From a virus: a stretch of 20,570 nt of DNA. Both the position numbers and the translations under genes were made by a program. Below are positions 256 through 20,570 of the stretch, one piece after another. The notes under the pieces are model-generated. The model made no database searches. It saw nothing but the letters and a program-made list of their open reading frames with translations, and had not been told where the DNA came from. The DNA is taken from the IMG/VR virus record IMGVR_UViG_3300031920_000325, positions 1-20,570 of that record, one strand, 5' to 3'. Each line of letters opens with the position of its first letter. The first letter of the stretch is position 1.

Positions 256-1224
256 TTATATTTTTCTTAATGTTACACGATTCAATATCGTAAATTTCTT
301 ACCAACAATTTCCTTATGGTTTTTGATTGTTCCCTTCATTATGACCTCGGTATTAACAAGTGCGGGAATGGCTGCTGCTACACCTTCCTTTGTTTCATCA
401 GAAACTTTAGTGAAAAGACCATATGAGGTTCTAACGTAACTGTCTTTGTATTCAACACCAGTTAATTTACACATGGCTTTGGGTGTTGCGTAGAATTGGA
501 ATCTGTTTCCCTCGGTTTCTGTCCTAACCCTGTAACTAATATCACTACCATAATCCGAATAATTGTCAGGTCCCGATGCGTAGGCATTAATTTTCTCAAT
601 TAATACTGTCATTTCAACCTTGTCGCCACGATTTCCGAAAAAATCTTTGGTTTCTGCTGCTCTATTGGTGTCAGCCATTGACCTGAAGTACGTGTCACTA
701 AATTCTTGTGCTAAATCATGGAATTGTCTTTGTTTTGCATTTCTTGCCGTGAAATTCTTTGCAATCCATATAATATATTGTGGGTCTTCGGCATATACCT
801 CACCAAGAGTTCTGCCACGATATTTACCAAATCCAATGACATCAACGGGTCCACCAGCTAATCCTTTAAGGGTTTCGTGGTTATCAAAATATATTGGTTG
901 CTTTCCAGCAATCTGTTTTGCTTTTTCTGCTGCTCTAATGATGTCAGTTGCAAGATTTCCCATGTAGTGCATCTCACCAGCTTTGGGACTCCATTTCCAA
1001 AACGTGTAATATACCTGATGTCTTCCAGTAACTCCGATAAACATAGAACCCCATTCAGCAACATTCCAACTAGGGTCAACACCTTTTTCAACGATTTCTT
1101 CCGCTCTTTGAATATCTTCATCACTTATCTCTTTTGAGAAGAGGCTTCTAATATCTTCTTTAGGTTCATATGTTTCAGAAAGGAACGTTTTAATCTCTTC
1201 TGAGATAATATTATTAATGTCCAT
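256..1224 (-). CDS. ExoX-C-like domain protein with capsid-targeting-like N-terminus
   Basis: A 322-residue protein. Residues 128-158 contain VIGFGKYRGRTLGEVY followed by EDPQYIIWIAKNF. This is the signature of the small domain found at the C-terminus of exodeoxyribonuclease X-type exonucleases and in many phage proteins (FGKYKGKT...DPxYxxWl). The exonuclease catalytic domain itself is absent. The last 40 residues (VIMKGTIKNHKEIVG, then TILNRV) resemble the end of an OB-fold-like module seen in phage and metagenomic replication-associated proteins. The first 17 residues, with IISEEIKTFLSE, match the N-termini of the proteins at 9003-10298 and 7704-8330 and end in L-S-E, a possible prohead-protease site. 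Likely a DNA-associated protein that may be packaged; the biochemical role is unknown. It has its own upstream motif at 1239-1247. Confidence 0.75.
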   Translation of the reverse strand: MDINNIISEEIKTFLSETYEPKEDIRSLFSKEISDEDIQRAEEIVEKGVDPSWNVAEWGSMFIGVTGRHQVYYTFWKWSPKAGEMHYMGNLATDIIRAAEKAKQIAGKQPIYFDNHETLKGLAGGPVDVIGFGKYRGRTLGEVYAEDPQYIIWIAKNFTARNAKQRQFHDLAQEFSDTYFRSMADTNRAAETKDFFGNRGDKVEMTVLIEKINAYASGPDNYSDYGSDISYRVRTETEGNRFQFYATPKAMCKLTGVEYKDSYVRTSYGLFTKVSDETKEGVAAAIPALVNTEVIMKGTIKNHKEIVGKKFTILNRVTLRKI

Positions 1225-1304: not shown

Positions 1305-2261
1305 ATGAAGAAAATATTCACAATACTATTACTCACACTATTATCATTTATGCTCATCGGACAAGAACGAGAACTTAGTGATTATGAAAAATATCGCATG
1401 CAGCAGGAAGAAGAAATGTATGGGACTCCCGATACAACAAAAACTGATACCGTTGTTATCATTATTGAGCAAGAAGCTGAAGCTGTGGTAATTAACAATT
1501 ATTATAACGATTATACTCGGCCAAATCATCGATTTAACCTGGCTTTTGGCTCAGGATGGGGATATTATAATCAGCCATATTATGGTTATCCTAGTTATGG
1601 AGCATGGTATAGCGGTTATTATAATTACGAAGCATATTACGGAATGTACTATCCCTATTATGGGCATAATTATTATAGACACTATAACAGACATGTCAAT
1701 TATCCATATTATTCACAACCACGTGGACACCGATATGCTGCCTCTAATGCGTTGGGTAGAAGTAGGAACTACTATCGTCCATATAATAAAACGTATAGTA
1801 GTGGGTACGTGAATAAACCAACACAGACTAAGAAGAGTGTTGCGACAACCAGAACACAAAATACTAGAAATGGTACAACACAATATACTAGAAATGGTAC
1901 AAAAACTTCTTACTCAGCGAATTATAACAGAGCAAGAAAATCCAACCGTCCTCAATATAATAGGAGTGCGACTAGAACAACATCAACCACACAAAAAAGT
2001 ACAGCAGTACGTACACAATCACGTACATATCAACGTACAACACCAACTAGAAGTTCTAGTTCATATAGTAAACCTGCTCAGAGCCAATCACGTAGTTATA
2101 GAGCACCGTCAAGTGCTCCGTCAAGAGCACCGTCATATAGTAGAAGTAGCTCACCTTCGAGAAGCAGTTATAGTGCTCCAAGGTCAAGTAGTTCATCGGG
2201 AAGAAGTTATAGTAGTGGAAGCTCAAGTAGGAGTAGTTCTAGTGGCAAATCTAGGAGATAA
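1305..2261 (+). CDS. Secreted Tyr-rich / Ser-Arg-rich low-complexity protein
   Basis: A 318-residue protein. Residues 1-20 form a signal peptide (MKK, a Leu/Ile/Phe-rich core, then LIGQ) with likely cleavage just after Gly19 or Gln20. A short acidic stretch follows (YEKYRMQQEEEMYG), then a hydrophobic strand with INNYYND, then about 80 residues dominated by Tyr with YYGY, YYNY and YYPYYGH repeats. The last 150 residues are Ser/Arg/Thr-rich, with short repeats such as TRNGT and RSSS. Similar Sec-exported YYGY proteins of unknown function occur widely in Bacteroidota, which suggests capture from a host. No lipobox is evident. It may coat the cell surface or act in the periplasm during infection; no enzymatic motif is seen. 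The stop codon region overlaps the convergent gene by 11 bases. Confidence 0.8.
   Translation: MKKIFTILLLTLLSFMLIGQERELSDYEKYRMQQEEEMYGTPDTTKTDTVVIIIEQEAEAVVINNYYNDYTRPNHRFNLAFGSGWGYYNQPYYGYPSYGAWYSGYYNYEAYYGMYYPYYGHNYYRHYNRHVNYPYYSQPRGHRYAASNALGRSRNYYRPYNKTYSSGYVNKPTQTKKSVATTRTQNTRNGTTQYTRNGTKTSYSANYNRARKSNRPQYNRSATRTTSTTQKSTAVRTQSRTYQRTTPTRSSSSYSKPAQSQSRSYRAPSSAPSRAPSYSRSSSPSRSSYSAPRSSSSSGRSYSSGSSSRSSSSGKSRR
1861..1902 (+). repeat. Short tandem repeat inside the Tyr-rich gene
   Basis: ATACTAGAAATGGTACAA occurs twice 24 bases apart, encoding TRNGT in each unit. It is in frame and part of the low-complexity coding region. Confidence 0.7.
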
Positions 2262-3282
2262 ACTTAGTTCTCATGTGACTAGGAAGAATCTTAATCGCTG
2301 AGTGCTCGATTTCATAGACCTTAATATATGTATCAAACAATGACTTGATATTCAGACTTCCATATGGATTCATCGAATGAATGATGATTTCATGTGGGAG
2401 TTCCTTTTTATTGTCAATGCAATAATCGATAAGCCATTTGGCACAATGATAACCAGTCTTTTCTTTAAATGTGTCTGGGATGAAAAATCTTTCAGAATAA
2501 TTCTTTTCTGATTTTGGAATATGTTTAATTTTACTATTAACAGTTGTGGGTTTATTTTCATATTTCCAAATAAATCCACCAGCAGTGTTTCTTTCACCAC
2601 GGGCACATTTAGCTATATTACTGAAAGAAATTTTTAATTGTCTTCCTGCCTCATTCACTGAACCATAAACATCTATTAATTCATTATTTTTATCATACTG
2701 TGAAACACTGGAACTATTAGAATGATTTTCACCATATGCAGTAAAATCACGTTTCAATTCATTATGTGAGTGAATTATATTTTCTGATTGGGTAGACCAC
2801 TCTAAATTATTTCTATCATTATTCCACCTATTACCGTCTTTATGGTTTATTTGTGGTTTATTATCTGGATTAGGTATAAACGCTTCTCCAACAAGTCTAT
2901 GGATTGTTTTACGAATATCGTTTCCTTGATTCCTTAATGTTACAAATAATCCCGATTCGTTTTTCATTGGTGATAGTAAGTTATCACCTGAAGTTCCCTT
3001 ACATTTTTTTACTCTAATGACTCGACCTAAATCAGACACTTTATAAACTCCATCATATCCATCAATATCTTTCCATTTTTCAATTTCACCACCCAAATCA
3101 TGGTCAAAAGCAATGATTTCTGGTACGCCTTTCTTTTCAACGAGTGTTATGAAAGCATAGTAATTACGTACAATAATCCATTCCGCTAAATTAAAAACTG
3201 GTAAATGCATGTAGTTGAATGCATCCTCTGGTCTTCTGATGTCATCAAGGAATAGATTATATGTCTTTTTGTCTTTCATCAA
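2251..3282 (-). CDS. cREC receiver-like protein split by an in-frame NUMOD4-HNH endonuclease
   Basis: A 343-residue composite. Residues 7-64 (LFLDDIRRP near the start, then PEIIAFDHDLG) and about 274-325 (EKTGYHCAKWLIDYC, then IHSMNPYG and a final helix) are the two halves of a cyclic-phosphate-processing receiver (cREC) domain, normally contiguous except for a variable loop. Between them sits a typical homing endonuclease: NUMOD4 (68-92, WKDIDGYDGVYKVSDLGRV), HNH core (H128, then N146-H147-x-D-G, and NNLEW), and a NUMOD1-like repeat (194-240, QYDKNNELIDVYGS, ending GFIWKYE). The reading frame is open throughout. No Cys/Ser start or His-Asn-Cys end supports an intein. It is the last gene of the 3590-2251 operon and overlaps the preceding small gene by 26 bases. 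Confidence 0.85.
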   Translation of the reverse strand: MMKDKKTYNLFLDDIRRPEDAFNYMHLPVFNLAEWIIVRNYYAFITLVEKKGVPEIIAFDHDLGGEIEKWKDIDGYDGVYKVSDLGRVIRVKKCKGTSGDNLLSPMKNESGLFVTLRNQGNDIRKTIHRLVGEAFIPNPDNKPQINHKDGNRWNNDRNNLEWSTQSENIIHSHNELKRDFTAYGENHSNSSSVSQYDKNNELIDVYGSVNEAGRQLKISFSNIAKCARGERNTAGGFIWKYENKPTTVNSKIKHIPKSEKNYSERFFIPDTFKEKTGYHCAKWLIDYCIDNKKELPHEIIIHSMNPYGSLNIKSLFDTYIKVYEIEHSAIKILPSHMRTKFIS

Positions 3283-3406
3283 TATCCTTTTTACCTAATT
3301 GTCTACGTTTTTTTGAGGTGAAACGCTTTAACCAGCTATCACCAGATGCACCCCATTCTCCATTAATAAATGAATTCTGTTTGTTTCCTCTTCTTAATCT
3401 ACCCAT
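3257..3406 (-). CDS. Small basic hypothetical protein (49 aa)
   Basis: A 49-residue open frame beginning MGRLRRGNKQN and containing INGEWGASGDSWLKRF and a Lys/Arg-rich C-terminus. It overlaps the stop codon of the upstream gene (ATGGGTAG arrangement at 3399-3406) and runs 26 bases into the cREC-HNH gene, so translational coupling is likely. No family recognised. The GEWG(A/S)S segment recurs at the end of the micro-protein encoded at 7280-7354. The call rests on tight operon packing and a protein-like composition. Confidence 0.6.
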   Translation of the reverse strand: MGRLRRGNKQNSFINGEWGASGDSWLKRFTSKKRRQLGKKDIDERQKDI

Positions 3407-3687: not shown

Positions 3688-4272
3688 ATGAATAAAAAAA
3701 TATTGATTGCTGAAGATAATGAAACCAATTATCAATTAATTCGAGCTATTTTACCTCAAGATGGTCTCGATTTATTATGGACGAAAAATGGGGAAGAAGC
3801 CGTTAAAATTTATGAAGAAAATCTCGATATTAGTGTTATATTGATGGATATTAATATGCCGATAATGAACGGAACTACGGCAGCTAAAAAAATAAAAGAA
3901 ATTAATGAAAACGTTCCCATTATTGGTGTAACTGCATATCATGATGGGTTGCGAGATGAAACAAATCTTGATGCTTGTCTCGAAAAACCATTTTTAGCAA
4001 AGCAATTAGTATCGATTATCGATAAACACGTCAAAGATTTATGTACCGAAATGCTTGAAAGAGAAAATGATAGAGCAAAGGAATGGGTTGAAAGTGAAGA
4101 GGAAACACTTCGGGTATTGACTGGTGTTTCAAAAATACTAGAACTAACTGATTACGTAACTAAATCGGAGTCAACCAAAATATTAACTAAATTGGATGAA
4201 ATTAGAGACAGCTTAAAAAAAAAGAACATAAGTGAAAATAATCCCCTTAATACTGTCCTTCCTAATATTTAA
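3688..4272 (+). CDS. Stand-alone response-regulator receiver protein
   Basis: A 194-residue protein. Residues 1-115 are a complete CheY-like receiver domain: acidic pocket E9-D10 (IAEDN), phospho-acceptor D54 (ILMDINMPIMNG), switch Thr82 (IGVTA) and Lys100 followed by Pro-Phe (LEKPF). All catalytic positions are present, so it should be able to accept phosphate from a histidine kinase. The form resembles the receivers attached to hybrid kinases. Residues 116-194 are predicted helical and acidic/Lys-rich, with no recognisable DNA-binding or enzymatic output domain. A phage protein like this could tap or drain a host phosphorelay, which is an inference. It sits divergently from the operon that encodes the cREC-type receiver relative. 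Confidence 0.9.
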   Translation: MNKKILIAEDNETNYQLIRAILPQDGLDLLWTKNGEEAVKIYEENLDISVILMDINMPIMNGTTAAKKIKEINENVPIIGVTAYHDGLRDETNLDACLEKPFLAKQLVSIIDKHVKDLCTEMLERENDRAKEWVESEEETLRVLTGVSKILELTDYVTKSESTKILTKLDEIRDSLKKKNISENNPLNTVLPNI

Positions 4273-4864: not shown

Positions 4865-4869
4865 ACTGT

Positions 4870-4941
4870 TGACCCCGCAGGATTCGAACCTGCACTCTTG
4901 CGGACCAAAACCGCACGTGTTGCCAATTACACTAGGGGTCA
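4870..4941 (-). tRNA. tRNA-Gln (anticodon UUG)
   Basis: Cloverleaf: acceptor TGACCCC/GGGGTCA, anticodon stem TGCGG/CCGCA with loop TTTTGGT giving UUG, and T-arm GCAGG-TTCGAAT-CCTGC. U1-A72 is a known glutamine identity feature. No CCA is encoded. It is the last tRNA of the block on the minus strand. Confidence 0.88.
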
Positions 4942-4944
4942 ATG

Positions 4945-5029
4945 GGGGGATGGAAGGGTTTTCATCTACATCTCTGCCTCCAATGGCAGCACTTTCAAGT
5001 GTACACTTTTTTTATTAAGCTACACCCCC
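4945..5029 (-). tRNA. Degenerate tRNA-like element, class II length, identity uncertain
   Basis: The acceptor GGGGGTG pairs fully with CATCCCC (one G-U). The 85-base length and a strong CTGCC/GGCAG hairpin with loop ATTGGA in the variable-arm position suggest a class II tRNA (Ser or Leu type). A weak anticodon arm around CACTTGAAAGTG could carry UGA. The D-loop is an A-run without the usual GG, and the T-loop is TGAAAAC rather than TTCGAAT. It may be a decayed or noncanonical tRNA. Its 3' half closely resembles the element at 6130-6268. Confidence 0.4.
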
Positions 5030-5036
5030 ATTTGGA

Positions 5037-5117
5037 TGACCTGAAGGGACTCGAACCCTTAAACCTTACGGTGTCGCCTTCAAAGGGCGATGCATTAGCC
5101 AATTCTGCCACAGGTCA
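5037..5117 (-). tRNA. Class II-shaped tRNA with UUG anticodon
   Basis: Acceptor TGACCTG/CAGGTCA is perfect. The anticodon stem is TCGCC/GGCGA with loop CTTTGAA, so positions 34-36 read UUG. The variable arm is 13 bases with an ACC-GTAA-GGT stem. The T-arm is AAGGG-TTCGAGT-CCCTT. UUG would decode Gln CAA and U1-A72 fits Gln, but the long variable arm is a Ser/Leu/Tyr trait. Amino-acid identity is therefore left open. Confidence 0.7.
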
Positions 5118-5122
5118 ATATA

Positions 5123-5299
5123 CTATTCGTTTAACCATTTAACGAATTTATTTAAGGTATTTGTAGCACTTAACTCAGAAAAACATTCGTCATAAAATCC
5201 ATTATCGGCTGCTTCTGAACCATAATTGTCAACTACGAAGTTGTCTGGGTCTGATACAATTTCCTCAATTTTATCTTCTATTTCTTTTTCAGTTTTCAT
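5123..5299 (-). CDS. Small acidic hypothetical protein (58 aa)
   Basis: A 58-residue acidic protein beginning MKTEKEIEDKIEEIV and ending NKFVKWLNE, predicted mostly helical. No family recognised. It begins 3 bases after the stop of the HNH gene at 5302-6003 and ends 6 bases before the 5' end of the class II tRNA, so all three lie on one minus-strand transcript. The close spacing and regular codon use support a real gene. Confidence 0.6.
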   Translation of the reverse strand: MKTEKEIEDKIEEIVSDPDNFVVDNYGSEAADNGFYDECFSELSATNTLNKFVKWLNE

Positions 5300-5301
5300 A
5301 T

Positions 5302-6003
5302 CTAAATCATATTATCGTATTTTTCATAAATTTTAACCCATTTTCTAATAGCATTATCACTAACACCATATTTACGTCCAACCGCCAGATATGATGTATT
5401 CTTAATTTCCCTTATTAATTCTTTATGTGGTGGACGTTCAACTTTTCTCTTTTTTTTAAAATTCAATATTTGTTTATTACTGATTTTTTTATTTTTTCTA
5501 ACCAATTCTTTTTGTTTTATTTTTTCTAATCCACTTTTCCCTCTACAATGTGTGAGAAGTGTGGCATTACAATTAGGACAAACAATTTGAAGATTTTTAA
5601 TTCTGTTATCAGTATTATCACCATTAACATGGTCAATAATTAAACTCATTTTTTCACCATTCCATGTTTCATCTTGCCCACATTTTTCACAAATTCGTTC
5701 CTTTAAACCTTCAATATATAAACGATTCTTTAAATTTGAAGTGGTTGTATATGTTGAACCCGACACTAAAATTTCTTCAATTGGAATTCTTTTCAACCTA
5801 CCTAAATTACCATTCACCCTTAAAATACGTTCTTCATCTGTTTCGAAATGCGATATATCAATGTTATATAATTTCACATATTTTTGTGGTGTTTTTCTAC
5901 TGCTACCATGAATACTCATCCCAAGTAATTTAGTAACATCACTCCAATTTCTTGATTTTTTTATTATTTTCTCAAGATTATTTTTTATATATTTATCTTT
6001 CAT
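5302..6003 (-). CDS. HNH homing endonuclease with zinc-binding core and C-terminal HTH
   Basis: A 233-residue protein. Residues 17-53 (NWSDVTKLLGMSIHG and on to DISHF) resemble the N-terminal HTH-like module common in phage HNH endonucleases. The nuclease core has C105-x2-C108 (CEKCGQ), D124-H125-x-N127 (IIDHVNGDN), N137 (KNLQIVCPNC) and C142-x2-C145, which together bind structural zinc and the catalytic metal. Residues 203-224 (SYLAVGRKYGVSDNAIRKW) form a C-terminal helix-turn-helix for site recognition. It sits between the two tRNA blocks, a common position for homing endonucleases that spread within phage tRNA clusters. It has its own motif upstream at 6021-6029. Confidence 0.92.
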   Translation of the reverse strand: MKDKYIKNNLEKIIKKSRNWSDVTKLLGMSIHGSSRKTPQKYVKLYNIDISHFETDEERILRVNGNLGRLKRIPIEEILVSGSTYTTTSNLKNRLYIEGLKERICEKCGQDETWNGEKMSLIIDHVNGDNTDNRIKNLQIVCPNCNATLLTHCRGKSGLEKIKQKELVRKNKKISNKQILNFKKKRKVERPPHKELIREIKNTSYLAVGRKYGVSDNAIRKWVKIYEKYDNMI

Positions 6004-6020
6004 TGTAAATTCGTTTAAAT

Positions 6021-6029
6021 ATAAATACG
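6021..6029 (-). promoter_or_regulatory. CGTATTTAT motif before the HNH gene
   Basis: The core GTATTTAT is intact and lies 17 bases before the ATG at 6003. It sits just downstream of tRNA-His. Confidence 0.5.
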
Positions 6030-6046
6030 TTCGAATTTAAAAAAAG

Positions 6047-6121
6047 GGTGAAATGGGGGATTCGAACCCCTCACCGACAGTTTCACAGACTGTAATGCTA
6101 ACCAGTTACACCAAAATCACC
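6047..6121 (-). tRNA. tRNA-His (anticodon GUG)
   Basis: Anticodon stem ACAGT/ACTGT with loop CTGTGAA gives GUG. D-arm is GTAACTGGTTAGC-like and the T-loop is TTCGAAT with a GGGG/CCCC stem. The 5' GG and 3' C allow the extra G-1:C73 pair typical of tRNA-His. The acceptor contains two U-U mismatches. Confidence 0.88.
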
Positions 6122-6129
6122 ATATTAAA

Positions 6130-6268
6130 ATAATGGGTAGAATTTTCACCTACAAATCACCCCTCCAATGGGGCGTATGGTTGTTGCTACCGCTTTTACA
6201 ATTTTTCACCAAGCGTTCCCTCAAGGATTCATCATGCTACTTACAAATAGTGTTACCATCACCATTAC
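6130..6268 (-). tRNA. tRNA-like element, about 139 nt, possibly enlarged or decayed
   Basis: GTAATGG (6268-6262) can pair with CCATTAT (6136-6130). Next to the latter is a T-arm-like GTAGG-TGAAAAT-TCTAC hairpin and a strong CGCCCC/GGGGTG hairpin with loop ATTGGA. The spacing is 50-60 bases too long for a normal tRNA and no convincing anticodon arm could be drawn. The 3' half is conserved with 4945-5029. It fills the only long gap in the second tRNA block. Confidence 0.3.
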
Positions 6269-6275
6269 TCTTCGT

Positions 6276-6348
6276 CAACAAGACTGGAATCGAACCAATA
6301 TTCAGGTAACTCCACGTCACCCCGCTTTCTCCATCTGCGTACTTGTTG
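6276..6348 (-). tRNA. tRNA with UGG anticodon and abnormal G33 (Pro-type?)
   Basis: The acceptor CAACAAG/CTTGTTG is perfect. D-arm is CGC/GCG with GATGGAGA in the loop. The anticodon stem is GGTGA/TTACC and the T-arm ATTGG-TTCGATT-CCAGT. The seven-base loop CGTGGAG places UGG at 34-36, but position 33 is G instead of the near-universal U, and C32-G38 can pair to shrink the loop. Confidence 0.7.
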
Positions 6349-6353
6349 TTTTG

Positions 6354-6447
6354 TCTACGAGGTGGGGTTCGAACCCACGGAGGACAACGCCTTTGTGCCC
6401 TCACTGGTGTCCAAGACCAGTAACTTCAACCACTCGTTCACTCGTAG
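6354..6447 (-). tRNA. Class II tRNA with UGG anticodon (Ser/Leu-type body)
   Basis: Acceptor CTACGAG/CTCGTAG with A73. The D-arm contains CGAGTGGTTGAAG, a strong tRNA-Ser-type signature. The anticodon stem CTGGT/ACCAG has loop CTTGGAC, reading UGG. The long variable arm pairs GAGG..ACAA with TTGT.CCTC, and the T-arm is GTGGG-TTCGAAC-CCCAC. The body says Ser or Leu, while the anticodon says Pro. Confidence 0.78.
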
Positions 6448-6454
6448 AAATTGT

Positions 6455-6526
6455 AGAGTAGACAGGACTCGAACCTGCGACCCCCTGCTCCCAAAGCAGG
6501 TACACTACCAACTGTGCTACTACTCT
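6455..6526 (-). tRNA. tRNA-Pro (anticodon UGG)
   Basis: Acceptor AGAGTAG/CTACTCT, D-arm GCAC-AGTTGGTA-GTGT, anticodon stem CCTGC/GCAGG with loop TTTGGGA (UGG, G37), and T-arm GCAGG-TTCGAGT-CCTGT. It is canonical. Its first seven bases overlap the stop region of the upstream HNH gene. Confidence 0.9.
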
Positions 6527-7703: not shown

Positions 7704-8330
7704 ATGAATAAAGCAGATTTTGTCAGAATTATAAGTGAAGAAGTCTCTAAATTCGATTTTTTAGGGAACGATAAACACCTTAAAGAACAAGAGACCACAG
7801 ATTTAATGTTAAATGAAGAGTTACAGAAGCAATTTATCTGTGACGCACTTTTGAATAGAAGTGATAAGGTTAAGATAGTAAAAATTGCCGATTCTTTTAT
7901 CTCAGGTAATTGGGACGAAAGTAACCAAGAAGACGCAGATAGAGTCTCATTAGAATATTCCCTTGATATGGAATATAATTATGATAGTACTCAAAAGCCA
8001 ATTTACTTCAACCTGTCATTCAATTCAGATAGAATTGATATTAGTGTTGATGGATGGTCGGACCCAGGCAGATGGGCTGGTACTATGGCAGATTCAATGG
8101 AACCAAGTGGTGAGGCATGGTATGATGTTTTTAATTGGGGCGATATTGAAGTTACTTTGCATACTATGGAAGATAATGATGAAGTCAGATTCATTGCTTT
8201 CGACAACGCACCACCTAATATCCAAATGTTATTCATTCGAGAATTTACTGAGAGTTTCATTGAAACCGAAACTCTTGAACTGAGAACTGATGATAATAAA
8301 GTCACGATTCAAAATACACCGTACTGTTAA
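7704..8330 (+). CDS. Hypothetical protein with capsid-targeting-like N-terminus (208 aa)
   Basis: The N-terminus has VRIISEEVSKF at residues 7-17, matching the II-x-EE[IV]-x-x-F signal shared with the proteins at 256-1224 and 9003-10298. Downstream L-K-E (26-28) and L-N-E (36-38) triplets are possible protease sites. The rest is acidic with alternating strands (YFNLSFNSDRIDISVDGWSD, split by turns) and several Trp. No known domain recognised. It may be a head-internal protein delivered with the DNA, inferred only from the N-terminus. It is followed one base later by the 8332 gene, so the two form an operon. Confidence 0.7.
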   Translation: MNKADFVRIISEEVSKFDFLGNDKHLKEQETTDLMLNEELQKQFICDALLNRSDKVKIVKIADSFISGNWDESNQEDADRVSLEYSLDMEYNYDSTQKPIYFNLSFNSDRIDISVDGWSDPGRWAGTMADSMEPSGEAWYDVFNWGDIEVTLHTMEDNDEVRFIAFDNAPPNIQMLFIREFTESFIETETLELRTDDNKVTIQNTPYC

Positions 8331-8793: not shown

Positions 8794-8997
8794 TTACCAT
8801 TTCCCAATTCGACAATGAGACTTTGGACTTCTTGTCTTTGCAGGCATATAACATCCACATAAGTTACAAATGTTTCTTTGGTTTAGTTTGGGGCAATCTA
8901 CACAGATTTCGATGCGCCTCTTGGCTTCCGTTTCAATAGCTTGATTTGGGAATGTAAAATTCTTCCATCCGTCATAAATTTCTTGTAATCTACTCAT
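8794..8997 (-). CDS. Small zinc-ribbon protein (67 aa)
   Basis: Start taken at MSRLQEIYDGW; a longer frame begins at 9024 but would overlap the end of the upstream gene. Residues 29-67 carry two knuckles: C32-x2-C35-P (ICVDCPK) and C44-x2-C47-G-C49 (ICNLCGCYM), followed by a Lys/Arg stretch and C62 close to the end (HCRIGKW). This CxxCP...CxxCGC...C-x-x-GKW arrangement is a recurrent small zinc-ribbon family in tailed phages with no firm function. Last gene of the 12339-8794 operon, 5 bases after the ADP-ribosyltransferase gene. Confidence 0.85.
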   Translation of the reverse strand: MSRLQEIYDGWKNFTFPNQAIETEAKRRIEICVDCPKLNQRNICNLCGCYMPAKTRSPKSHCRIGKW

Positions 8998-9002
8998 AAT
9001 GA

Positions 9003-10298
9003 TTAATTTACATGATAACCCCACTCAAATATATCGTTTCCATCGGTATAGAGTGTTCGTGCTGGAACTGTTTTTGAAACAATTTTAAATTGGTTTAGGT
9101 TAGCCTTTCCGTGTTCATTTGCATAGTCACGGCTTATTGAAACCCAATCACCATCATTAATTGGTAGTGGTTTTGTTCTGCTTGAATAAAGTTCATCGAA
9201 TTGATTATTGACATCATCCAATATATGTTTCATTTTATCATCATAATCCAAATTCTCATATTTATCATCTAAGGAACGAACAATATCGTTTTTCATTGGA
9301 AAAAAATTAAATTTATGATAATATCTTATGATTTCATTTAGTTTATTTAACATCAATTTATTATCATAATTAACATCAGGAACTGCTCGATATATTTTAA
9401 TTGGTAGATTTGGTTTGTTTCTGGCTGACTGAATGACTTGAATTGCTTGAGCATCTCTATTATCACCATAGTGAGAATACATTCTTGCTGCATCATTACC
9501 ATATATATCATCAGGAAATAGTTTAGTTAAATCATGCATCTGAGCATCATCCTCGCCTTTAGGTGCACTATGGTCACCACGATAATCGTCTTCATTTAAA
9601 AACTTACTAATTTCTTCTTTTATTATATTTAAAACACTTTCATTAGTACCTGAAATCCTGTCAAGTGATGCTTCACCACCTTCAATAAATATCTCAGATA
9701 AGTCAGACCTTTGATGACTAATATCGAGTGCTTTATTAATTAACACCAGTATCTGATTCGGGTCTTGGATTTCCATCAATTGTTGCACAACCCCATTTAG
9801 TGGTTCCAGACCATAATCACTAATTAAATCATGACCGTTTGAAAACTTTGGCATAAATTCTTCGAGGACATCAGCATAACCCTTTTCTTCCATATATTCC
9901 CATGCTTCACTCCAATCTTTAACACTTTCACCTGTTTCTTCAGTATTGAAAACCCAATCGTTGAAAGTATCTACATTAAAATAACTTGTGTGTCCATAAA
10001 ACATTGTATTTACATCAAGAAAGATAGTATTTCTTATTACAATACCTTTCCAATCATGAATGTGTTTTGTGGGGTAGCGCATGATTTGACCATATTTCAC
10101 GAATTCATTGAGTGCCTGTTGATACATCTGGGGTTTGATTTTCTTTAGAATAATTTTGGTTGTATCACCATTAACCATTTTATACAATATATCCCTAAAC
10201 ACATCATCATACTCTTCATCATAATCATGCATGTCAGTGAAATCATTTTCTTTTAAAAATCGATTAATTTCCTCATTTATAATTTTAAGTATAGTCAT
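9003..10298 (-). CDS. Probable packaged ADP-ribosyltransferase with two capsid-targeting-like segments
   Basis: A 431-residue protein. Residues 257-431 look like an R-S-E class ADP-ribosyltransferase: IKIYRAVP (R304), DGDWVSISRDYANEHG (S-x-S at 387-389) and TDGNDIFEWGY (candidate catalytic E425). The IYRAVP...GDWVS-S..YA..HG...TDG...EWGY series is familiar from phage-associated and MuF-type ADP-ribosyltransferases. Such enzymes transfer ADP-ribose from NAD+ to host proteins, as T4 Alt does. Residues 4-17 (LKIINEEINRFLKE) and 222-236 (VLNIIKEEISKFLNE) are near copies of one signal, each ending in L-x-E. Residues 18-215 are an unrecognised acidic domain. It looks like two packaged proteins fused head to tail. 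The gene starts 1 base after the LamG-like gene ends. Confidence 0.8.
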   Translation of the reverse strand: MTILKIINEEINRFLKENDFTDMHDYDEEYDDVFRDILYKMVNGDTTKIILKKIKPQMYQQALNEFVKYGQIMRYPTKHIHDWKGIVIRNTIFLDVNTMFYGHTSYFNVDTFNDWVFNTEETGESVKDWSEAWEYMEEKGYADVLEEFMPKFSNGHDLISDYGLEPLNGVVQQLMEIQDPNQILVLINKALDISHQRSDLSEIFIEGGEASLDRISGTNESVLNIIKEEISKFLNEDDYRGDHSAPKGEDDAQMHDLTKLFPDDIYGNDAARMYSHYGDNRDAQAIQVIQSARNKPNLPIKIYRAVPDVNYDNKLMLNKLNEIIRYYHKFNFFPMKNDIVRSLDDKYENLDYDDKMKHILDDVNNQFDELYSSRTKPLPINDGDWVSISRDYANEHGKANLNQFKIVSKTVPARTLYTDGNDIFEWGYHVN

Positions 10299-10299
10299 G

Positions 10300-12339
10300 T
10301 TAACGATAAATTATTCTTCCACCTTTGCTTACCACCATATTCTTAGTTGGGTCTGCTTTGGCTTCCATTATTGCGTTATGAAGGATTTCTTGTGAAGTAA
10401 ATGCTCTGTCATAAACTCTGAGCTTCTGTATTCCACCAATGAAGCTGTAATCGAAGTTCTGCTCAATAGTTAGATTATTTTTCCTTTCATCCTGTATGAG
10501 AATATCAGCAGCAGTATAAACAAAGTCATTAACGAAAATAGTACCACCTGTGATAAGTTCACCACTAGTTTCAATCAGTAATCCAAGTGATACGAAACTC
10601 TGTCCACTATTATCTGTTGTTCTGAATGTGCTTTTCATTGATAACCAAGTTTCTTGACCAGTAACGGCATAATAAATTTGTGATGAATCGGGGCGAGTAT
10701 AACCAACTATGTTCGCATTCACTTGTGATACAGGGAAACCTGTTTCACCATAATACATTACACCATCAACAACCCACTCATATTCTTGGTCATCTGGGAA
10801 TGGGTGTAATCCCAATGCACCTTGTTCCAATAGATGTGCATTGGTTAATGGAAATAGATATTCTATGTCAGAAACAATATTAACATCCACATCATCACTA
10901 AACATCAGAACACTTATTTTATTTTGTGCTTCCGAATCAAAGATGTTATCAACAAATACTGAAAGGTCAACAACGTAATCTCTATTCGATAATACTGAAA
11001 TCGGTTGGTCAAATTTCAAGAAATACGTATTTCCTGTTCCACCTGTGTATTCCATGCGCATAACAGTCATTGTGTGTTCCACATCGGGTTCGCAAGCATC
11101 TGTATAATGGAATGTTGTGGTGTCAGCACTCAATAGGAAACCGTTTACCTGTGTATCACCAGTTGGTGGTATATAGCAGTCGGTTTGAATTGGGTCTGCG
11201 TCAACAACGAATTTCGAGTCAATATAGGCTTGATTCTGACCATTATATATTATATATGTCTGATAATCGTAATGCCATGATTCAGCTAATCCAAAACTAC
11301 CACCACCCCAACTCATAGAGTATGGTACTCCCAACTGCTTCTCCTTGTCATTAACAAATCCGTGGAAATAGTATTCAGGAAATTCCTTAATAGTCCAAAT
11401 CGCACGACCATTAACATACATTACAAGTTTTCCAATTCGTTGTTCAGCACATTCGAGTTCGTCTTCCGCTAAAACCTCATCAGGGGTAAATGCCATTGCA
11501 ATCATAGTCCAACCCGTTGTTGGATTAACTTGTAATGTAGATTTGTTTGTCACAACAAGTCCACTAGCATCAACATACTTATAAGCCAATTTCTTATCTT
11601 GAGTTATTTCGAAAGCAATCACGTTATTCTTGATGTTATCAAGTGGTGGCACTTCCTTATAAACGGTCTTGTACATGTTTGATTCAGGTAAACTAAAAGC
11701 ATCTCTGAGTTCTTCATATGGTTCAAGTGCGTCAAGGAAATTATCCAAACTTGTTGTTACACCACTAACTGTGCTGCCCGTTACGGTCTCACCACTAAAA
11801 TATGGATTGTATTTGTCTTCTGCACGAGCACCCATCATATAGAAAATACCCTGAGATTCAGGATAGAGATACATTAAGGTCTCAATAGTAATGCCTTTAC
11901 CATATCGTGCAGGTAGTAATTCGTAGTTGTAGTCTTCTAACTTAAAGAATCCCTGTAAATATCCACCATCCAAATCAAAATAATTACCGCTTGTGCCTGT
12001 TGTTACTGCCGAAATTGGCAGATACTCTGTTGTTACTGTAACTCCACTTGTCTCGCCACCAATTGGGTTCTCAATATCATTATATCCGACCTTATACATT
12101 GAAAACAGGTTATCTTGTGGTATTAATTCGATACCACTCCACATGATGTCGGTTCTACCGTTGTCAAAGCCCGTTAAGCCAAAGTCGAGTAAGTTAAGGT
12201 TGTCAGAAACCGCACCAGACCACTTGGTTAGACTAATAGAAGTCAAACCCGTGTTTAAATCCCATGATTTAAGGTCAGTTAAGTCAATATGTATTGCCAG
12301 ATTACTGGTGATGATGTCGTTTAAGCATTCTAAATTCAT
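10300..12339 (-). CDS. LamG-like structural protein (679 aa)
   Basis: A large, Thr/Ser/Gly-rich, beta-strand protein. Recognisable concanavalin A-like (LamG) signs are the GKLVMYVNGRAIW strand with the FHGF turn in the middle, and the C-terminal GIQKLRVYDRAFTSQEILHN segment, the usual last strand and helix of phage LamG domains. The chain ends KGGRIIYR, an ending I associate with structural proteins of large Bacteroidota phages. Probably a virion surface or tail-fibre-like protein binding glycans; exact place unknown. First gene of a minus-strand operon with the ADP-ribosyltransferase and the zinc-ribbon protein, from a motif at 12358-12366. Confidence 0.8.
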   Translation of the reverse strand: MNLECLNDIITSNLAIHIDLTDLKSWDLNTGLTSISLTKWSGAVSDNLNLLDFGLTGFDNGRTDIMWSGIELIPQDNLFSMYKVGYNDIENPIGGETSGVTVTTEYLPISAVTTGTSGNYFDLDGGYLQGFFKLEDYNYELLPARYGKGITIETLMYLYPESQGIFYMMGARAEDKYNPYFSGETVTGSTVSGVTTSLDNFLDALEPYEELRDAFSLPESNMYKTVYKEVPPLDNIKNNVIAFEITQDKKLAYKYVDASGLVVTNKSTLQVNPTTGWTMIAMAFTPDEVLAEDELECAEQRIGKLVMYVNGRAIWTIKEFPEYYFHGFVNDKEKQLGVPYSMSWGGGSFGLAESWHYDYQTYIIYNGQNQAYIDSKFVVDADPIQTDCYIPPTGDTQVNGFLLSADTTTFHYTDACEPDVEHTMTVMRMEYTGGTGNTYFLKFDQPISVLSNRDYVVDLSVFVDNIFDSEAQNKISVLMFSDDVDVNIVSDIEYLFPLTNAHLLEQGALGLHPFPDDQEYEWVVDGVMYYGETGFPVSQVNANIVGYTRPDSSQIYYAVTGQETWLSMKSTFRTTDNSGQSFVSLGLLIETSGELITGGTIFVNDFVYTAADILIQDERKNNLTIEQNFDYSFIGGIQKLRVYDRAFTSQEILHNAIMEAKADPTKNMVVSKGGRIIYR

Positions 12340-12428: not shown

Positions 12429-13724
12429 ATGATTAAAGATACTAGACAACGACTCTTTGAAATAATGAAGAGTGTTAATACTATACCTATTAATGAGAAT
12501 AATGTTAGCTACTTACCCAAAAAAGAGTTTTTAAAAGAAATTGATTGGGGTGGTGATTTCGCTGACGCAAACGCAAGTTGTTTAAAACCAGAGGCTGTTG
12601 TCAAATGGTTAAATGATGAACTTCACCGTTTAAAATCAAATAGAGGTAATAAAGAAAAGGATAAAACCAAAAGAGGTGTTGGGGATATGATTGTAACTCA
12701 GGGTAATATTGAAGCTACTCAGGGTGAAACGGGTGATATTGAAATTGATACCTTCATATCAAATATAACCAAGGAACCCACAAATATTTTCGATAGCAAT
12801 CCAAAGGCAGAAAAAAGTGATGTTGGAAGACCTCAATTTACTGTAAATACAGGGTTACCAGCAATAGTTGGTATCGTATATGATAAGGAAAATCAAATTG
12901 GTTCAGAATCTCAATTCTATTCCGTGACTACATGTCCAGGTGCAGGTACTTGTGTTGTTGGTTGTTATGCAAGGAAAGCATTCTACGGTATGGATGACTC
13001 AAAAACGATGAAATTAACTCGAAGACTTAATTTTTTATTGAACGACCCGAAGAAATATGAAATGAGAGCATATGCTGAATTACTTGAAAAATCAACAGGT
13101 ATTCCTGATTGGCAGATGTTGATTATCAGGTGGAATGACGCAGGTGATTTTTTCGCACAAAAATATTTTGAAATTGCGAAAAATATAACCAAAAGACTAT
13201 TGGATGATGGACGTAACGTGAAATCATATGCTTATACTAAACGTGCTGAATATGTCATGGAGTTAGACGATAATGATAATTTCACTGTTAATTTCTCAAC
13301 TGATGCAAATAAAATAGAGCGTGATAAAATTAGTAATTGGGATGGTGATGCAAATACTAAGAAATCACATCGAGTTCCAGCATATCGTACAGAAAAACAA
13401 CCAACCAAAAAAAATCCAGATAAAGTGGTGAAGGTTCCAGAATGGAAACATTTCTTTAAACGAAAAGGTCCTCATTATCTAAAAGACTCTAACGATAAGG
13501 TGATTTTTGCCACGGATTCATCTAAAGAAGAATTAAAAACATATATTTTTGAGAAGTATGGTAGTGAATTTGGTTTCGAAAATGATAGTTTGAGATATAC
13601 ATGGGAACTCCCATTGGAGGACGAAGGTGGAAGAATATATAACGTAATTGTTCTACCTTCAGGTGATAGTGATTTATCAGCACAAAGAGAAGATGTTAGA
13701 ATGTCATTCCTATTAGAACATTAA
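12429..13724 (+). CDS. GP88-family-like protein with capsid-targeting-like N-terminus
   Basis: A 431-residue protein. Residues 165-276 carry TTCPGAGTCVVGCYARKAFYG (C169, C175, C179), an Arg/Asn segment (TRRLNFLLND), IIRWNDAGDFF (234-242) and SYAYTKRAEYV. This CPGAGTC..CYA...IR...GDF...YTK order is that of the phage 'gene 88' (GP88) family, conserved but functionally uncharacterised; the Cys cluster suggests metal binding. Residues 1-23 (TRQRLFEIMKSV, then TIPINE) match the start of the next gene's product and end in I-N-E, a possible processing site. The C-terminal 150 residues are extra relative to the short family core and unrecognised. First gene of the 12429-17740 block. Confidence 0.75.
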   Translation: MIKDTRQRLFEIMKSVNTIPINENNVSYLPKKEFLKEIDWGGDFADANASCLKPEAVVKWLNDELHRLKSNRGNKEKDKTKRGVGDMIVTQGNIEATQGETGDIEIDTFISNITKEPTNIFDSNPKAEKSDVGRPQFTVNTGLPAIVGIVYDKENQIGSESQFYSVTTCPGAGTCVVGCYARKAFYGMDDSKTMKLTRRLNFLLNDPKKYEMRAYAELLEKSTGIPDWQMLIIRWNDAGDFFAQKYFEIAKNITKRLLDDGRNVKSYAYTKRAEYVMELDDNDNFTVNFSTDANKIERDKISNWDGDANTKKSHRVPAYRTEKQPTKKNPDKVVKVPEWKHFFKRKGPHYLKDSNDKVIFATDSSKEELKTYIFEKYGSEFGFENDSLRYTWELPLEDEGGRIYNVIVLPSGDSDLSAQREDVRMSFLLEH

Positions 13725-13749: not shown

Positions 13750-14256
13750 ATGAAAAAGAACGATAAACAAAGATTATTCGAGGTAATGGGTAGACTCGAC
13801 AAAACATTTATACCTAAATTAAATGAAGGAATTGATGATATGGAGGTTGACAGAATGCCCGATACAGGTCAAGCACCAGATTTACAAGACATGCCAGCAC
13901 CTGAAGCAATGCCTGATGAAGAAGGTGTTGAAGAAAAGTCTCCTGAAGAAAAACTTGCTGATTTAACGGCAAAGGTTGATGAGATGCACGCTATGCTTCA
14001 TGGTGGTGATGAAGAAATTGAAGTAGCTACTGGCGAAGTTGATGCAGAGAATCTTCAAGAATGGAATTTCGATAAGAAAAAGGGCGAAAAAGAAGAAGGT
14101 AATAAGCATGAAGAAAAAGAAAGTGCTGAATTCGAAAAGGGTGAAAAGGAAGAAGAGAAGGAAGAAGTTGATGAGGACGTGAGTATCAATGTTACAGAAA
14201 AAAAGGGTAAAGCACTAAGTGCTGAAAAAGCACCTGAAGTCGAAATAGGCAAGTAA
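13750..14256 (+). CDS. Acidic low-complexity protein, candidate prohead-core component (168 aa)
   Basis: N-terminus KQRLFEVMGRL (residues 6-16) parallels the GP88-like protein. It is followed by IPKLNEG, where L24-N25-E26 before Gly27 is a strong-looking T4-type prohead protease site. The remainder is Asp/Glu/Pro/Lys-rich with a short coiled-coil-like helix (EEKLADLTAKVDEMHAML, 67-84) and charged EK repeats. Residues 150-165, EKKGKALSAEKAPEVE, are identical to a segment of the 774-residue protein at 15416-17740. Charge and size resemble the small internal or core proteins of T4-like heads. The role is inferred; no homologous family is certain. The nucleotidyltransferase gene follows after 13 bases. 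Confidence 0.75.
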   Translation: MKKNDKQRLFEVMGRLDKTFIPKLNEGIDDMEVDRMPDTGQAPDLQDMPAPEAMPDEEGVEEKSPEEKLADLTAKVDEMHAMLHGGDEEIEVATGEVDAENLQEWNFDKKKGEKEEGNKHEEKESAEFEKGEKEEEKEEVDEDVSINVTEKKGKALSAEKAPEVEIGK

Positions 14257-18919: not shown

Positions 18920-20570
18920 ATGAGTGATGAATTTGATATAAAATTGGAAGGGGCTTCCGATGAGGATAAATTGAATCTTAAATTGGTTGATATTCCTGAG
19001 ATAGACGATTCCGAATTTCCTGAACATGTCCCGATAATTTCTTATAACGCACAAAAAGCGAAAGAAAAGGAAGAAGCACGAGACCAAGCAAAAAAACTTA
19101 GAAAAGCTGCTAGTAATGTTGAGGCGATAATTGTAACTAAATCAACAGTAATAAAGAAAGCTAGTGAATTAACATATGCTGAACAGGAAGATGAAATCGT
19201 TCGATGCATTACCAATCCACTATATTTTATCGAAACATATTTAACAATCTTTGACCAGACACAAGGTGCTAATGGTATGATTGTGCCTTTCAAGTTGTTT
19301 GATTTCCAAAAAACATTAATCGATGCATATCAAAACCATCGATTCGTTATTGCTAACAAATATCGTCAAGCAGGTATATCAACAACCACCTGTGCATATA
19401 TTGCATGGTATATCATGTTTAATAAAAACAGGGCATGTGCAATTGTTGCCGATAAGTTGGAAACCGCAACTGGTGAGTTAATGAGTGATGTCGTTGAATT
19501 TATTGAAATGTGTCCTAAATGGCTTAGACCAAAAACAGGTAAAGAATCTGAAGATGGTTTAAAAGACACCCAAAAACTTAAGATTTATGATAATAAGTCA
19601 AGGCTAGGTGCATTCGCATCTAAGATGATTCGTGGTATGACACCAACCTTATTATTTTGGGATGAAACTGCATGGGCAGAAAAGAATGATAAGTTCTGGA
19701 CATCAGCACTACCATCATTGGTAACTGGTGGTCGTGCAATCATGGTTAGCACTCCTTCAGGACTTGACCCCGTATTCTATAAGACGTTTCAGGGTGCAAG
19801 AGAATTAGATGACGAAGGGAAACCTAAAAACAACTTCCATGCCGTTGAACTCTGGTGGTATAATGACCCAAGATATAATAAGGATTTATATTGGATTAAA
19901 AACAAAAATAAGGAAGACGAGATTAAATTAGAGGACAACGGTAGGTCACAGGAGCAACGAAGTCAATTAGTTAATGATGGTTGGGTTGCGAATAATGTAT
20001 GGTTTGAAGAACAAGTTAAGAATGCCAATGGCGACATGCGTAAAGTTGCGCAGGAGCTACTTTGTTCTTTCTTAGGTTCTGGTGATAACTTTATTGCTGA
20101 AGAATATCTTAAGCGAATCGAGGAAAAAGAGGTTAGAGTTCCAATTAAACAAGAATATCACGATGGTAATATGTGGATTTGGGAAGACCCAATTCCTGGG
20201 GAAGACTATATCATGGCATTGGATGCTTCACCTGGACACGGTGAGGATAACTCAACACTAAACATGTTGAAAACCGTTGAAATTATTGAGACAAAGACAA
20301 TTAAGAAAAATGGTAAAATAAAGAAAGTCAAGTTAAAACGACATAAAGTTGAACAAGTTGCTGAATATTACGGTAAAATTACCCCGCAATTACTTGCTGA
20401 AATAGCATACCAATATGGTAAAGCCTATTATGATGCTTATTGTGTTGTTGATGTTACGGGTGGTCATGGAGTTCATACTGTTGAGAAAATGTTGGAAATC
20501 GGATATGAGAACGTCCATTATGCTGAAGTAGCTCACAAACCAACAAGAGATAGATTACAGGGTTACATTA
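18920..20570 (+). CDS. Terminase large subunit, T4 gp17-like (partial, 550 codons visible)
   Basis: The ATPase-nuclease motor that pumps DNA into the prohead and cuts the concatemer. After an acidic N-terminal region with a Lys/Glu/Arg-rich helix (45-65) comes LFDFQKTLIDAYQNHRFV (adenine-motif region). Then come the deviant Walker A KYRQAGISTTT (147-157), Walker B LLFWDE (D248-E249) and the coupling motif VSTPSG (276-281). The nuclease domain shows MALDASPGHG (D435) and VVDVTGGHG (D511), acidic residues expected for the RuvC-like metal site. It runs off the window end; T4 gp17 has 610 residues, so perhaps 50-100 residues are missing. Walker A position and overall order agree with T4-type enzymes. 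No Shine-Dalgarno precedes the ATG. Confidence 0.95.
   Translation, partial: MSDEFDIKLEGASDEDKLNLKLVDIPEIDDSEFPEHVPIISYNAQKAKEKEEARDQAKKLRKAASNVEAIIVTKSTVIKKASELTYAEQEDEIVRCITNPLYFIETYLTIFDQTQGANGMIVPFKLFDFQKTLIDAYQNHRFVIANKYRQAGISTTTCAYIAWYIMFNKNRACAIVADKLETATGELMSDVVEFIEMCPKWLRPKTGKESEDGLKDTQKLKIYDNKSRLGAFASKMIRGMTPTLLFWDETAWAEKNDKFWTSALPSLVTGGRAIMVSTPSGLDPVFYKTFQGARELDDEGKPKNNFHAVELWWYNDPRYNKDLYWIKNKNKEDEIKLEDNGRSQEQRSQLVNDGWVANNVWFEEQVKNANGDMRKVAQELLCSFLGSGDNFIAEEYLKRIEEKEVRVPIKQEYHDGNMWIWEDPIPGEDYIMALDASPGHGEDNSTLNMLKTVEIIETKTIKKNGKIKKVKLKRHKVEQVAEYYGKITPQLLAEIAYQYGKAYYDAYCVVDVTGGHGVHTVEKMLEIGYENVHYAEVAHKPTRDRLQGYI

What the first reader, a model, noticed from the sequence alone, without database searches (positions are those of the whole stretch)
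9003..10298. ADP-ribosyltransferase with two near-identical capsid-targeting-like segments: an Alt analogue made by fusion
Seen: residues 4-17 (LKIINEEINRFLKE) and 222-236 (VLNIIKEEISKFLNE) are copies of one signal, one at the start and one in the middle, both ending L-x-E. Seen: the C-terminal domain has R304, S387-x-S389 and E425 in the order of R-S-E ADP-ribosyltransferases. Known: T4 Alt is packaged through a short N-terminal signal, cleaved by gp21 and injected to modify host RNA polymerase. Inferred: this gene fuses two packaged proteins. Protease cleavage at both sites would release an unknown 219-residue effector and a separate transferase inside the head.
Basis: partly seen in the sequence, partly recalled or inferred. 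Interest (0 to 1): 0.75.

Follow-up and report, generated by a model that had tools for sequence, protein, structure and literature searches.

The report
Phage head effectors fused with signals
A virus of bacteria carries one gene that joins two proteins, each still bearing its own apparent 'pack me into the virus head' tag ending in a cutting site, which suggests that phages make and deliver several host-attacking proteins from one string.

Summary
The 431-aa product (window 10298-9003, minus strand) has two leader-like helices, residues 2-17 and 222-236. They are 9/14 identical, not near-identical, and are the best internal 15-mer match in the protein. In 1,654 gene products of 77 related phage loci the motif occurs 13 times, 11 at N-termini (about 0.1 expected). 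The only internal copies are this one and one at the C-terminus of a relative. In relatives, residues 222-431 form a stand-alone gene starting exactly at the second signal. The N-domain is separate too, once with its own N-terminal signal. The C-terminal domain is a predicted ADP-ribosyltransferase: R304, S/T387 and E425 are conserved, and the structural matches are almost all ARTs. It is not an Alt-family sequence. Relatives encode a T4-type prohead protease, portal and gp23, and their gp23 has I-N-E at the T4 cleavage site. Packaging and cleavage are inferred, not shown. N-domain relatives carry the signal at the C-terminus, and a distant gp23-type phage has giant proteins with repeated leader-like L-x-E linkers.

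The parts
9003..10298 (-). Fusion gene, 431 aa: signal 1 - N-domain - signal 2 - ADP-ribosyltransferase domain
   Evidence: Open frame. No ATG/GTG/TTG in frame between residues 185 and 254, so the ART cannot be started separately at signal 2 by a standard start codon.
10248..10295 (-). Signal 1 (residues 2-17, TILKIINEEINRFLKE), predicted helix ending L-x-E
   Evidence: Sequence; helix 2-17 in the AlphaFold2 model; same leader on other cargo
9642..10247 (-). N-domain (residues 18-219), helical, no known family
   Evidence: Relatives at 61-66% identity as separate genes at the same place in L033, L035, L036, L041, and a distant one with its own N-terminal signal in L195. No Pfam or PHROG match.
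9591..9635 (-). Signal 2 (residues 222-236, VLNIIKEEISKFLNE), predicted helix ending L-x-E
   Evidence: Aligns with the N-terminal leader of the stand-alone ART genes L005-L008, L032, L034 and with the C-terminal tail of N-domain-only proteins; helix 220-236
9003..9590 (-). ADP-ribosyltransferase domain (residues 237-431) and stop; R304 at 9387-9389, S387 at 9138-9140, E425 at 9024-9026
   Evidence: Family alignment of 38; PHROG 2579 E 9e-30; model pLDDT mostly above 90 from about residue 280; fold of the insert-less relative L034 matches ART structures
10300..12339 (-). Upstream neighbour, 679-aa protein with a weak laminin-G-like C-terminus; left border of the cargo slot
   Evidence: Weak Pfam Laminin_G_3 match; 76 loci found with it
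8794..8997 (-). Small cysteine-rich (zinc-ribbon-like) protein; right border of the cargo slot
   Evidence: Matches in 63 loci, usually directly after the LamG-like gene when the slot is empty
7704..8330 (+). Conserved neighbour with a similar leader helix (MNKADFVRIISEEVSKFDFL) and LKE at about residue 28
   Evidence: Leader-type N-terminus conserved in about 30 loci
256..1224 (-). Another cargo with the same leader (MDINNIISEEIKTFLSE); ExoX-like C-terminal motif
18920..20569 (+). T4-type terminase large subunit (cut by the contig end): start of the head-gene cluster
   Evidence: Pfam PF03237 E 2e-6; in relative G002 followed by portal, protease and gp23

Best explanation
The gene is a natural fusion of two head-targeted cargo proteins of a T4-like phage, probably infecting Bacteroidetes. 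Each unit keeps its own capsid-targeting leader: an amphipathic helix [ILV]xxIIxxE[IV]xxFLxE. Shown by sequence: the two units exist apart in relatives, the junction lies exactly at the second leader, the leader is shared by unrelated cargoes, and relatives carry the matching T4-type protease and capsid gene. Inferred: either leader brings the precursor into the prohead core. The gp21-like protease then cuts after E17 (FLKE) and E236 (FLNE) during head maturation, leaving an unknown helical effector (18-236, still bearing the spent second leader) and a free ADP-ribosyltransferase (237-431) in the head. Both are ejected with the DNA, and the transferase modifies a host molecule, as T4 Alt does.
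For: Stand-alone ART genes beginning at signal 2 in L005-L008, L032, L034. Stand-alone N-domain genes in the same slot and with an N-terminal signal in L195. Motif enrichment at N-termini. [LI]xE enriched 1.5- to 2-fold at residues 9-40 of gene products in this region. gp21-type protease, portal and gp23 in the relatives. T4 gp23 E65 aligns with HMINE|S. T4 ipII and ipIII leaders MKTYQEFIAE|A resemble leaders of other stand-alone ARTs of this family, e.g. MKTFKQYFLE|SEDYRG in contigs with gp23, two of the three also with a gp21-type protease. gp21 cleaves after L/I-x-E, and 10-19-aa propeptides act as targeting sequences (PMC9026906). ART fold and conserved R-(S/T)-E.
Against: No virion proteomics or biochemistry. 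The window contig itself ends inside the terminase gene and contains no protease or capsid gene. Structural matches are modest (best Z 5.3, Foldseek E above 0.1). N-domain-only relatives lack the N-terminal signal and mostly lost L-x-E in the C-terminal copy, so cutting at signal 2 may be dispensable there. L-x-E is a short motif and occurs often by chance (about 20% of 16-residue stretches).
Confidence: 0.6

Rival explanations
1. Fusion packaged uncut: the gene is a true fusion of two packaged proteins, but signal 2 is only a leftover linker or a second core-binding helix. The virion carries one bifunctional 414-residue protein after removal of signal 1.
For: N-domain-only relatives keep the helix but mostly lose the cleavage triplet at that place (YFND, YYKDNE, FMIAND). 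In T4 an aspartate at the cleavage position blocks processing but not targeting (PMC9026906). Some polyvalent proteins are packaged unprocessed (PMC5512222).
Against: In the window the triplet at signal 2 is intact (FLNE|D), is the same as in stand-alone leaders, and is flanked by low-confidence, probably exposed stretches.
Confidence: 0.22
2. The helices are not head-targeting signals but a general docking or oligomerisation helix, for example binding another phage protein in the cell. The gene acts after late expression without being packaged.
For: The leader also occurs on the conserved 7704-8330 family with FDFL in place of FLxE. No direct packaging data.
Against: Distant members of the same ART family swap this leader for a T4 ipIII-like MKTFKQYFLE leader at the same place in gp23-bearing phages. 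Leaders of the window clade end in the gp21 triplet. The genes lie near the terminase-portal-capsid cluster.
Confidence: 0.12
3. The fused arrangement is a chance or sequencing artefact of two adjacent genes, without function as a fusion.
For: Only the window shows the complete signal-N-domain-signal-ART order in this clade.
Against: A single lost stop would not create it: there is no usable start codon for the ART between residues 185 and 254. The N-domain tail in four relatives also continues into the signal helix, and a distant phage repeats the order linker, N-domain, linker.
Confidence: 0.04

Closest known systems
T4 internal head proteins with capsid-targeting sequences (IPI, IPII, IPIII) processed by gp21
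   Same: Short N-terminal leader ending (L/I)xE directly before variable cargo, in a phage group with gp21-type protease, gp20 and gp23
   Different: Leader sequence is a different, longer amphipathic helix; two leaders in one chain; cargo includes an ART; packaging not shown
T4 Alt
   Same: Predicted ADP-ribosyltransferase with a leader cut site, likely head-packaged; Alt too is processed at both termini by gp21 (PMC9026906)
   Different: No detectable sequence relation; much smaller ART; target unknown
Polyvalent proteins of phages (Iyer et al. 2017, PMC5512222) and packaged phage ARTs (PMC9503650)
   Same: ARTs fused with other injected domains; the same ART family occurs inside 1000-2000-aa polyvalent proteins
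   Different: Here the units are separated by a copy of the leader with a protease triplet, and each unit exists alone in relatives
PHROG 2579 'ParB C-terminal domain' (mycobacteriophage proteins such as Murphy gp127)
   Same: Homologous domain, E 9e-30
   Different: The ParB name probably describes another part of those proteins (inference); the shared part is the ART-like domain

Membership tests
T4-type capsid-targeted, prohead-protease-processed head protein | Short N-terminal leader ending in L/I-x-E just before the cargo | tested here: met
   Leader 1-17 ends FLKE; second leader ends FLNE and is N-terminal in stand-alone relatives
T4-type capsid-targeted, prohead-protease-processed head protein | Phage encodes a gp21-type protease and gp23 capsid with the same cleavage triplet | tested here: met
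   Relatives G002-G004: PF03420 E about 1e-20, PF07068 E about 1e-65; HMINE|S aligned with T4 gp23 E65. The window fragment itself ends before that cluster.
T4-type capsid-targeted, prohead-protease-processed head protein | Present in the virion head and cleaved after the leader | not testable with these tools
   Needs virion proteomics
ADP-ribosyltransferase superfamily | Conserved R - S/T - E in strand 1, strand 2 and the last strand | tested here: met
   R85, T/S103 and E142 of A10 (window R304, S387, E425) in 38 relatives; R in strand 80-88, T in 101-103, E just before strand 143-145 of the L034 model
ADP-ribosyltransferase superfamily | ART fold | tested here: met
   Model of L034 (pLDDT 88.5): almost every listed structural match is an ART or its relative (Tpt1/KptA Z 5.3, rmsd 2.6, 73 aligned; Vis, PARPs, SdeA, ExoS, RES). 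Z values are moderate and Foldseek E-values exceed 0.1, so this is assignment by consistent company rather than by one strong match.
ADP-ribosyltransferase superfamily | Transfers ADP-ribose from NAD+ | not testable with these tools
   No assay
Alt/VIP2 ART family | Detectable sequence relation to Alt or its Pfam/NCBIfam models | tested here: not met
   No ART model of Pfam or NCBIfam matched any of 38 members; no significant PDB sequence match
MuF-type ART fusion | MuF or portal domain in the same chain | tested here: not met
   No such Pfam match; N-domain is an unknown helical domain
Polyvalent protein | Two or more unrelated delivered domains in one chain | tested here: inconclusive
   Two separable units are present, but the N-domain's activity and delivery are unknown

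The most novel reading that the evidence does not exclude
Some T4-like phages make strings of packaged effectors as polyproteins: each cargo carries its own targeting helix, N- or C-terminal, and the prohead protease cuts the string at the L-x-E ending each helix inside the prohead. The window gene is the simplest two-unit case, formed at a slot where cargoes recombine through the shared signal. A distant gp23-type phage (G051) would have the extreme form: a 4069-aa and a 2605-aa protein with 7 and 6 leader-like (I/V)GxLDxxLxE-type linkers between domains, including a relative of the N-domain with such a linker on both sides.
Probability: 0.35. Interest if true: 0.8.

Novelty: new variant of a known kind. 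Interest (0 to 1): 0.6.

Why it matters
Capsid-targeting leaders and polyvalent effector proteins are each known, but how multi-domain effectors are packed and separated is mostly open. A gene with two complete leader-plus-cargo units, whose halves occur alone at the same slot in relatives, suggests a simple route (fusion at the shared signal, separation by the head protease) and gives a testable prediction at two exact peptide bonds. It also gives a sequence handle for finding packaged effectors in uncultured T4-like phages and extends the ART superfamily to a phage family that Pfam does not list and PHROG calls ParB.

Tried and rejected
Pfam, NCBIfam and PDB sequence searches gave no family for either half; only PHROG 2579 matched. 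Foldseek of the full-length model gave no significant PDB match, because the helical insert 307-375 and the poorly modelled N-domain filled the list, so an insert-less relative was folded instead. The N-domain could not be assigned a fold (model pLDDT mostly 35-82). It was not found in phage GenBank records. The first full alignment misplaced L195 and was redone without it. Direct descent versus recombination for the slot was not resolved: on the LamG tree ART-only, N-domain-only and fused slots interleave, which fits either an ancestral fusion with repeated loss or exchange between phages. The ART tree disagrees with the LamG tree (L007 and L008 are sisters in one, distant in the other), which favours some exchange. 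A possible ParB function was considered and dropped, since only the C-terminal part of PHROG 2579 matches.

Full report
What is there. The gene runs on the minus strand from 10298 to 9003 and encodes 431 residues. They are 9/14 identical over residues 4-17 and 223-236 and are the best-matching pair of 15-mers within the protein. The window is a 20,570-base viral contig that ends inside a T4-type terminase gene.

Is it more than chance? A strict pattern for the helix was scanned over 1,654 non-overlapping gene products of 77 loci. It gave 13 hits; 11 start within the first 15 residues, against 0.1 after shuffling the N-termini. Only two were internal: this protein and the C-terminus of the related L041 protein. 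The hits cover several unrelated cargoes: the ART, the N-domain, an ExoX-motif protein (256-1224), a second HGT-type ART family (its L007 member gives a weak ART-PolyVal match, E 0.003) and an unknown 259-aa protein in L053.

Is it a fusion? Yes. Relatives of residues 215-430 at 57-61% identity are stand-alone genes whose first residues are the signal, e.g. MNRLQEIIRNEVESFLSE-NDYRGEH. Seventy-six loci were collected through the upstream LamG-like gene. Between that gene and a small zinc-ribbon-like gene there is a slot. It is empty in most phages. It holds signal+ART in L032, L034, L038/L039, L040 and L076. It holds the N-domain in L033, L035, L036, L041 (decayed in L052) and another signal-bearing gene in L053/L054. 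Only the window has both in one frame. There is no ATG, GTG or TTG in frame between residues 185 and 254, so the ART cannot be translated separately from its own signal by a standard start codon. A distant N-domain relative, L195, stands alone with its own N-terminal signal MGRVKQIIREEINKFLNE.

A complication worth keeping: the four intact N-domain-only proteins have no N-terminal signal (the LamG stop lies 1-2 bases before their start) but all end in the signal helix: NFIISEEIIKFINE, KIIREEVSKYFND, KIINEEILNYYKDNE, RRIVREEIKNFMIANDRY. The hydrophobic and EE positions are kept and the L/I-x-E is mostly lost. This fits a C-terminal targeting helix that need not be cut; T4 Alt is processed at its C-terminus as well, and aspartate at the T4 cleavage position blocks cutting but not targeting (PMC9026906). 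On the LamG tree the three slot states interleave. So the fusion is either ancestral with repeated loss of one half, or the product of exchange at the slot; the shared signal is the joint in both cases.

Is the C-terminal domain an ART? In 38 relatives R304 and E425 are invariant and residue 387 is nearly always T or S. The full-length model is confident here (pLDDT mostly above 90) but carries a helical insert. A relative without the insert, L034, gave a model with pLDDT 88.5 and pTM 0.79. Its structural matches are almost exclusively ARTs: Tpt1/KptA (Z 5.3, rmsd 2.6, 73 residues), Vis, PARPs, SdeA, ExoS and RES-type proteins. Single scores are modest, so the assignment rests on the consistent company plus the catalytic residues in the expected strands. 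No Pfam or NCBIfam model covers it; PHROG 2579, named ParB C-terminal domain, does.

Is it a head-targeting signal? Context evidence only. The relatives encode a gp21-type protease, T4-type portal and gp23. Aligned with T4 gp23, whose propeptide is 65 residues long (PMC9026906), their gp23 has HMINE|S at T4 E65, matching the L/I-x-E rule. [LI]xE is enriched 1.5- to 2-fold at residues 9-40 of gene products in this region (33-41% of proteins per 16-residue stretch, against 20-23% further in). More distant members of the same ART family carry other short leaders directly before the DYRG start, such as MKTFKQYFLE-SEDYRG, close to the T4 ipII and ipIII leader MKTYQEFIAE-A. All three contigs with that leader have gp23 and two of them a gp21-type protease. 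A constant cargo with exchangeable leaders is what a targeting signal predicts.

Host. The nearest named gp23 records include Flavobacterium phage immuto (about 40% identity over 60%). Together with related-looking T4-like lake phages reported from Bacteroidetes (PMC9723584) this suggests a Bacteroidetes host. This is inference.

How it most likely works is given in Best explanation; anatomy and relatives are shown, packaging, cutting, injection and target are inferred. The widest reading comes from contig G051, a distant phage with gp23 and a weak gp21-like match next to it. Its 4069-aa protein holds seven (I/M)GxLxxxLxE-type linkers, 0.34 expected by shuffling, and a relative of the N-domain with such linkers on both sides; a second, 2605-aa protein has six. 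That would be the same principle at larger scale, but no gene in G051 was found to start with that linker as a leader, so the link is suggestive only.

Noticed in passing
L205:4039-16248 (-) and L203:12183-20000 (-), contig G051: Two giant polyvalent ORFs (4069 and 2605 aa) with repeated (I/V/M)GxLDxxLxE-type linkers, 7 and 6 copies, between domains; the larger one includes weak Arr-like and KptA/PARP-like matches and a relative of the N-domain.
   Followed up: partly
window 2251-3282 (-): A cREC-domain gene carries an in-frame insertion of about 195 residues with NUMOD4, HNH and NUMOD1 motifs; L007, L008 and L009 have the intact 140-aa gene. No Rfam intron match and no Hint domain seen.
   Followed up: partly
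window 12429-12510 and 13750-13830 (+); also G002 1770-2504 and 37599-38045, G003 2012-3286, L208:7699-8061: A second leader class, (Q/E)RLFEVMxRLDKTFxPxLNE, at the start of several otherwise unrelated proteins, mostly ending in L-x-E again.
   Followed up: no
L006:8914-9592 (-): The signal-bearing HGT-type ART gene is split into two frames here (66 and 141 aa) but intact in L007, L009 and L033.
   Followed up: no
window 4868-6526 (-): Cluster of six tRNA genes: two Gln, one His, three Pro, with two HNH endonuclease-like genes in and beside it.
   Followed up: no
window 3688-4272 (+): Phage-encoded response-regulator receiver domain protein, with similar genes at matching places in relatives.
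   Followed up: no
L053:11103-11882 (+): A further unknown 259-aa cargo with the same leader (MTLKNIINEEIRNFVTE) in the same slot, without any Pfam or PHROG match.
   Followed up: no
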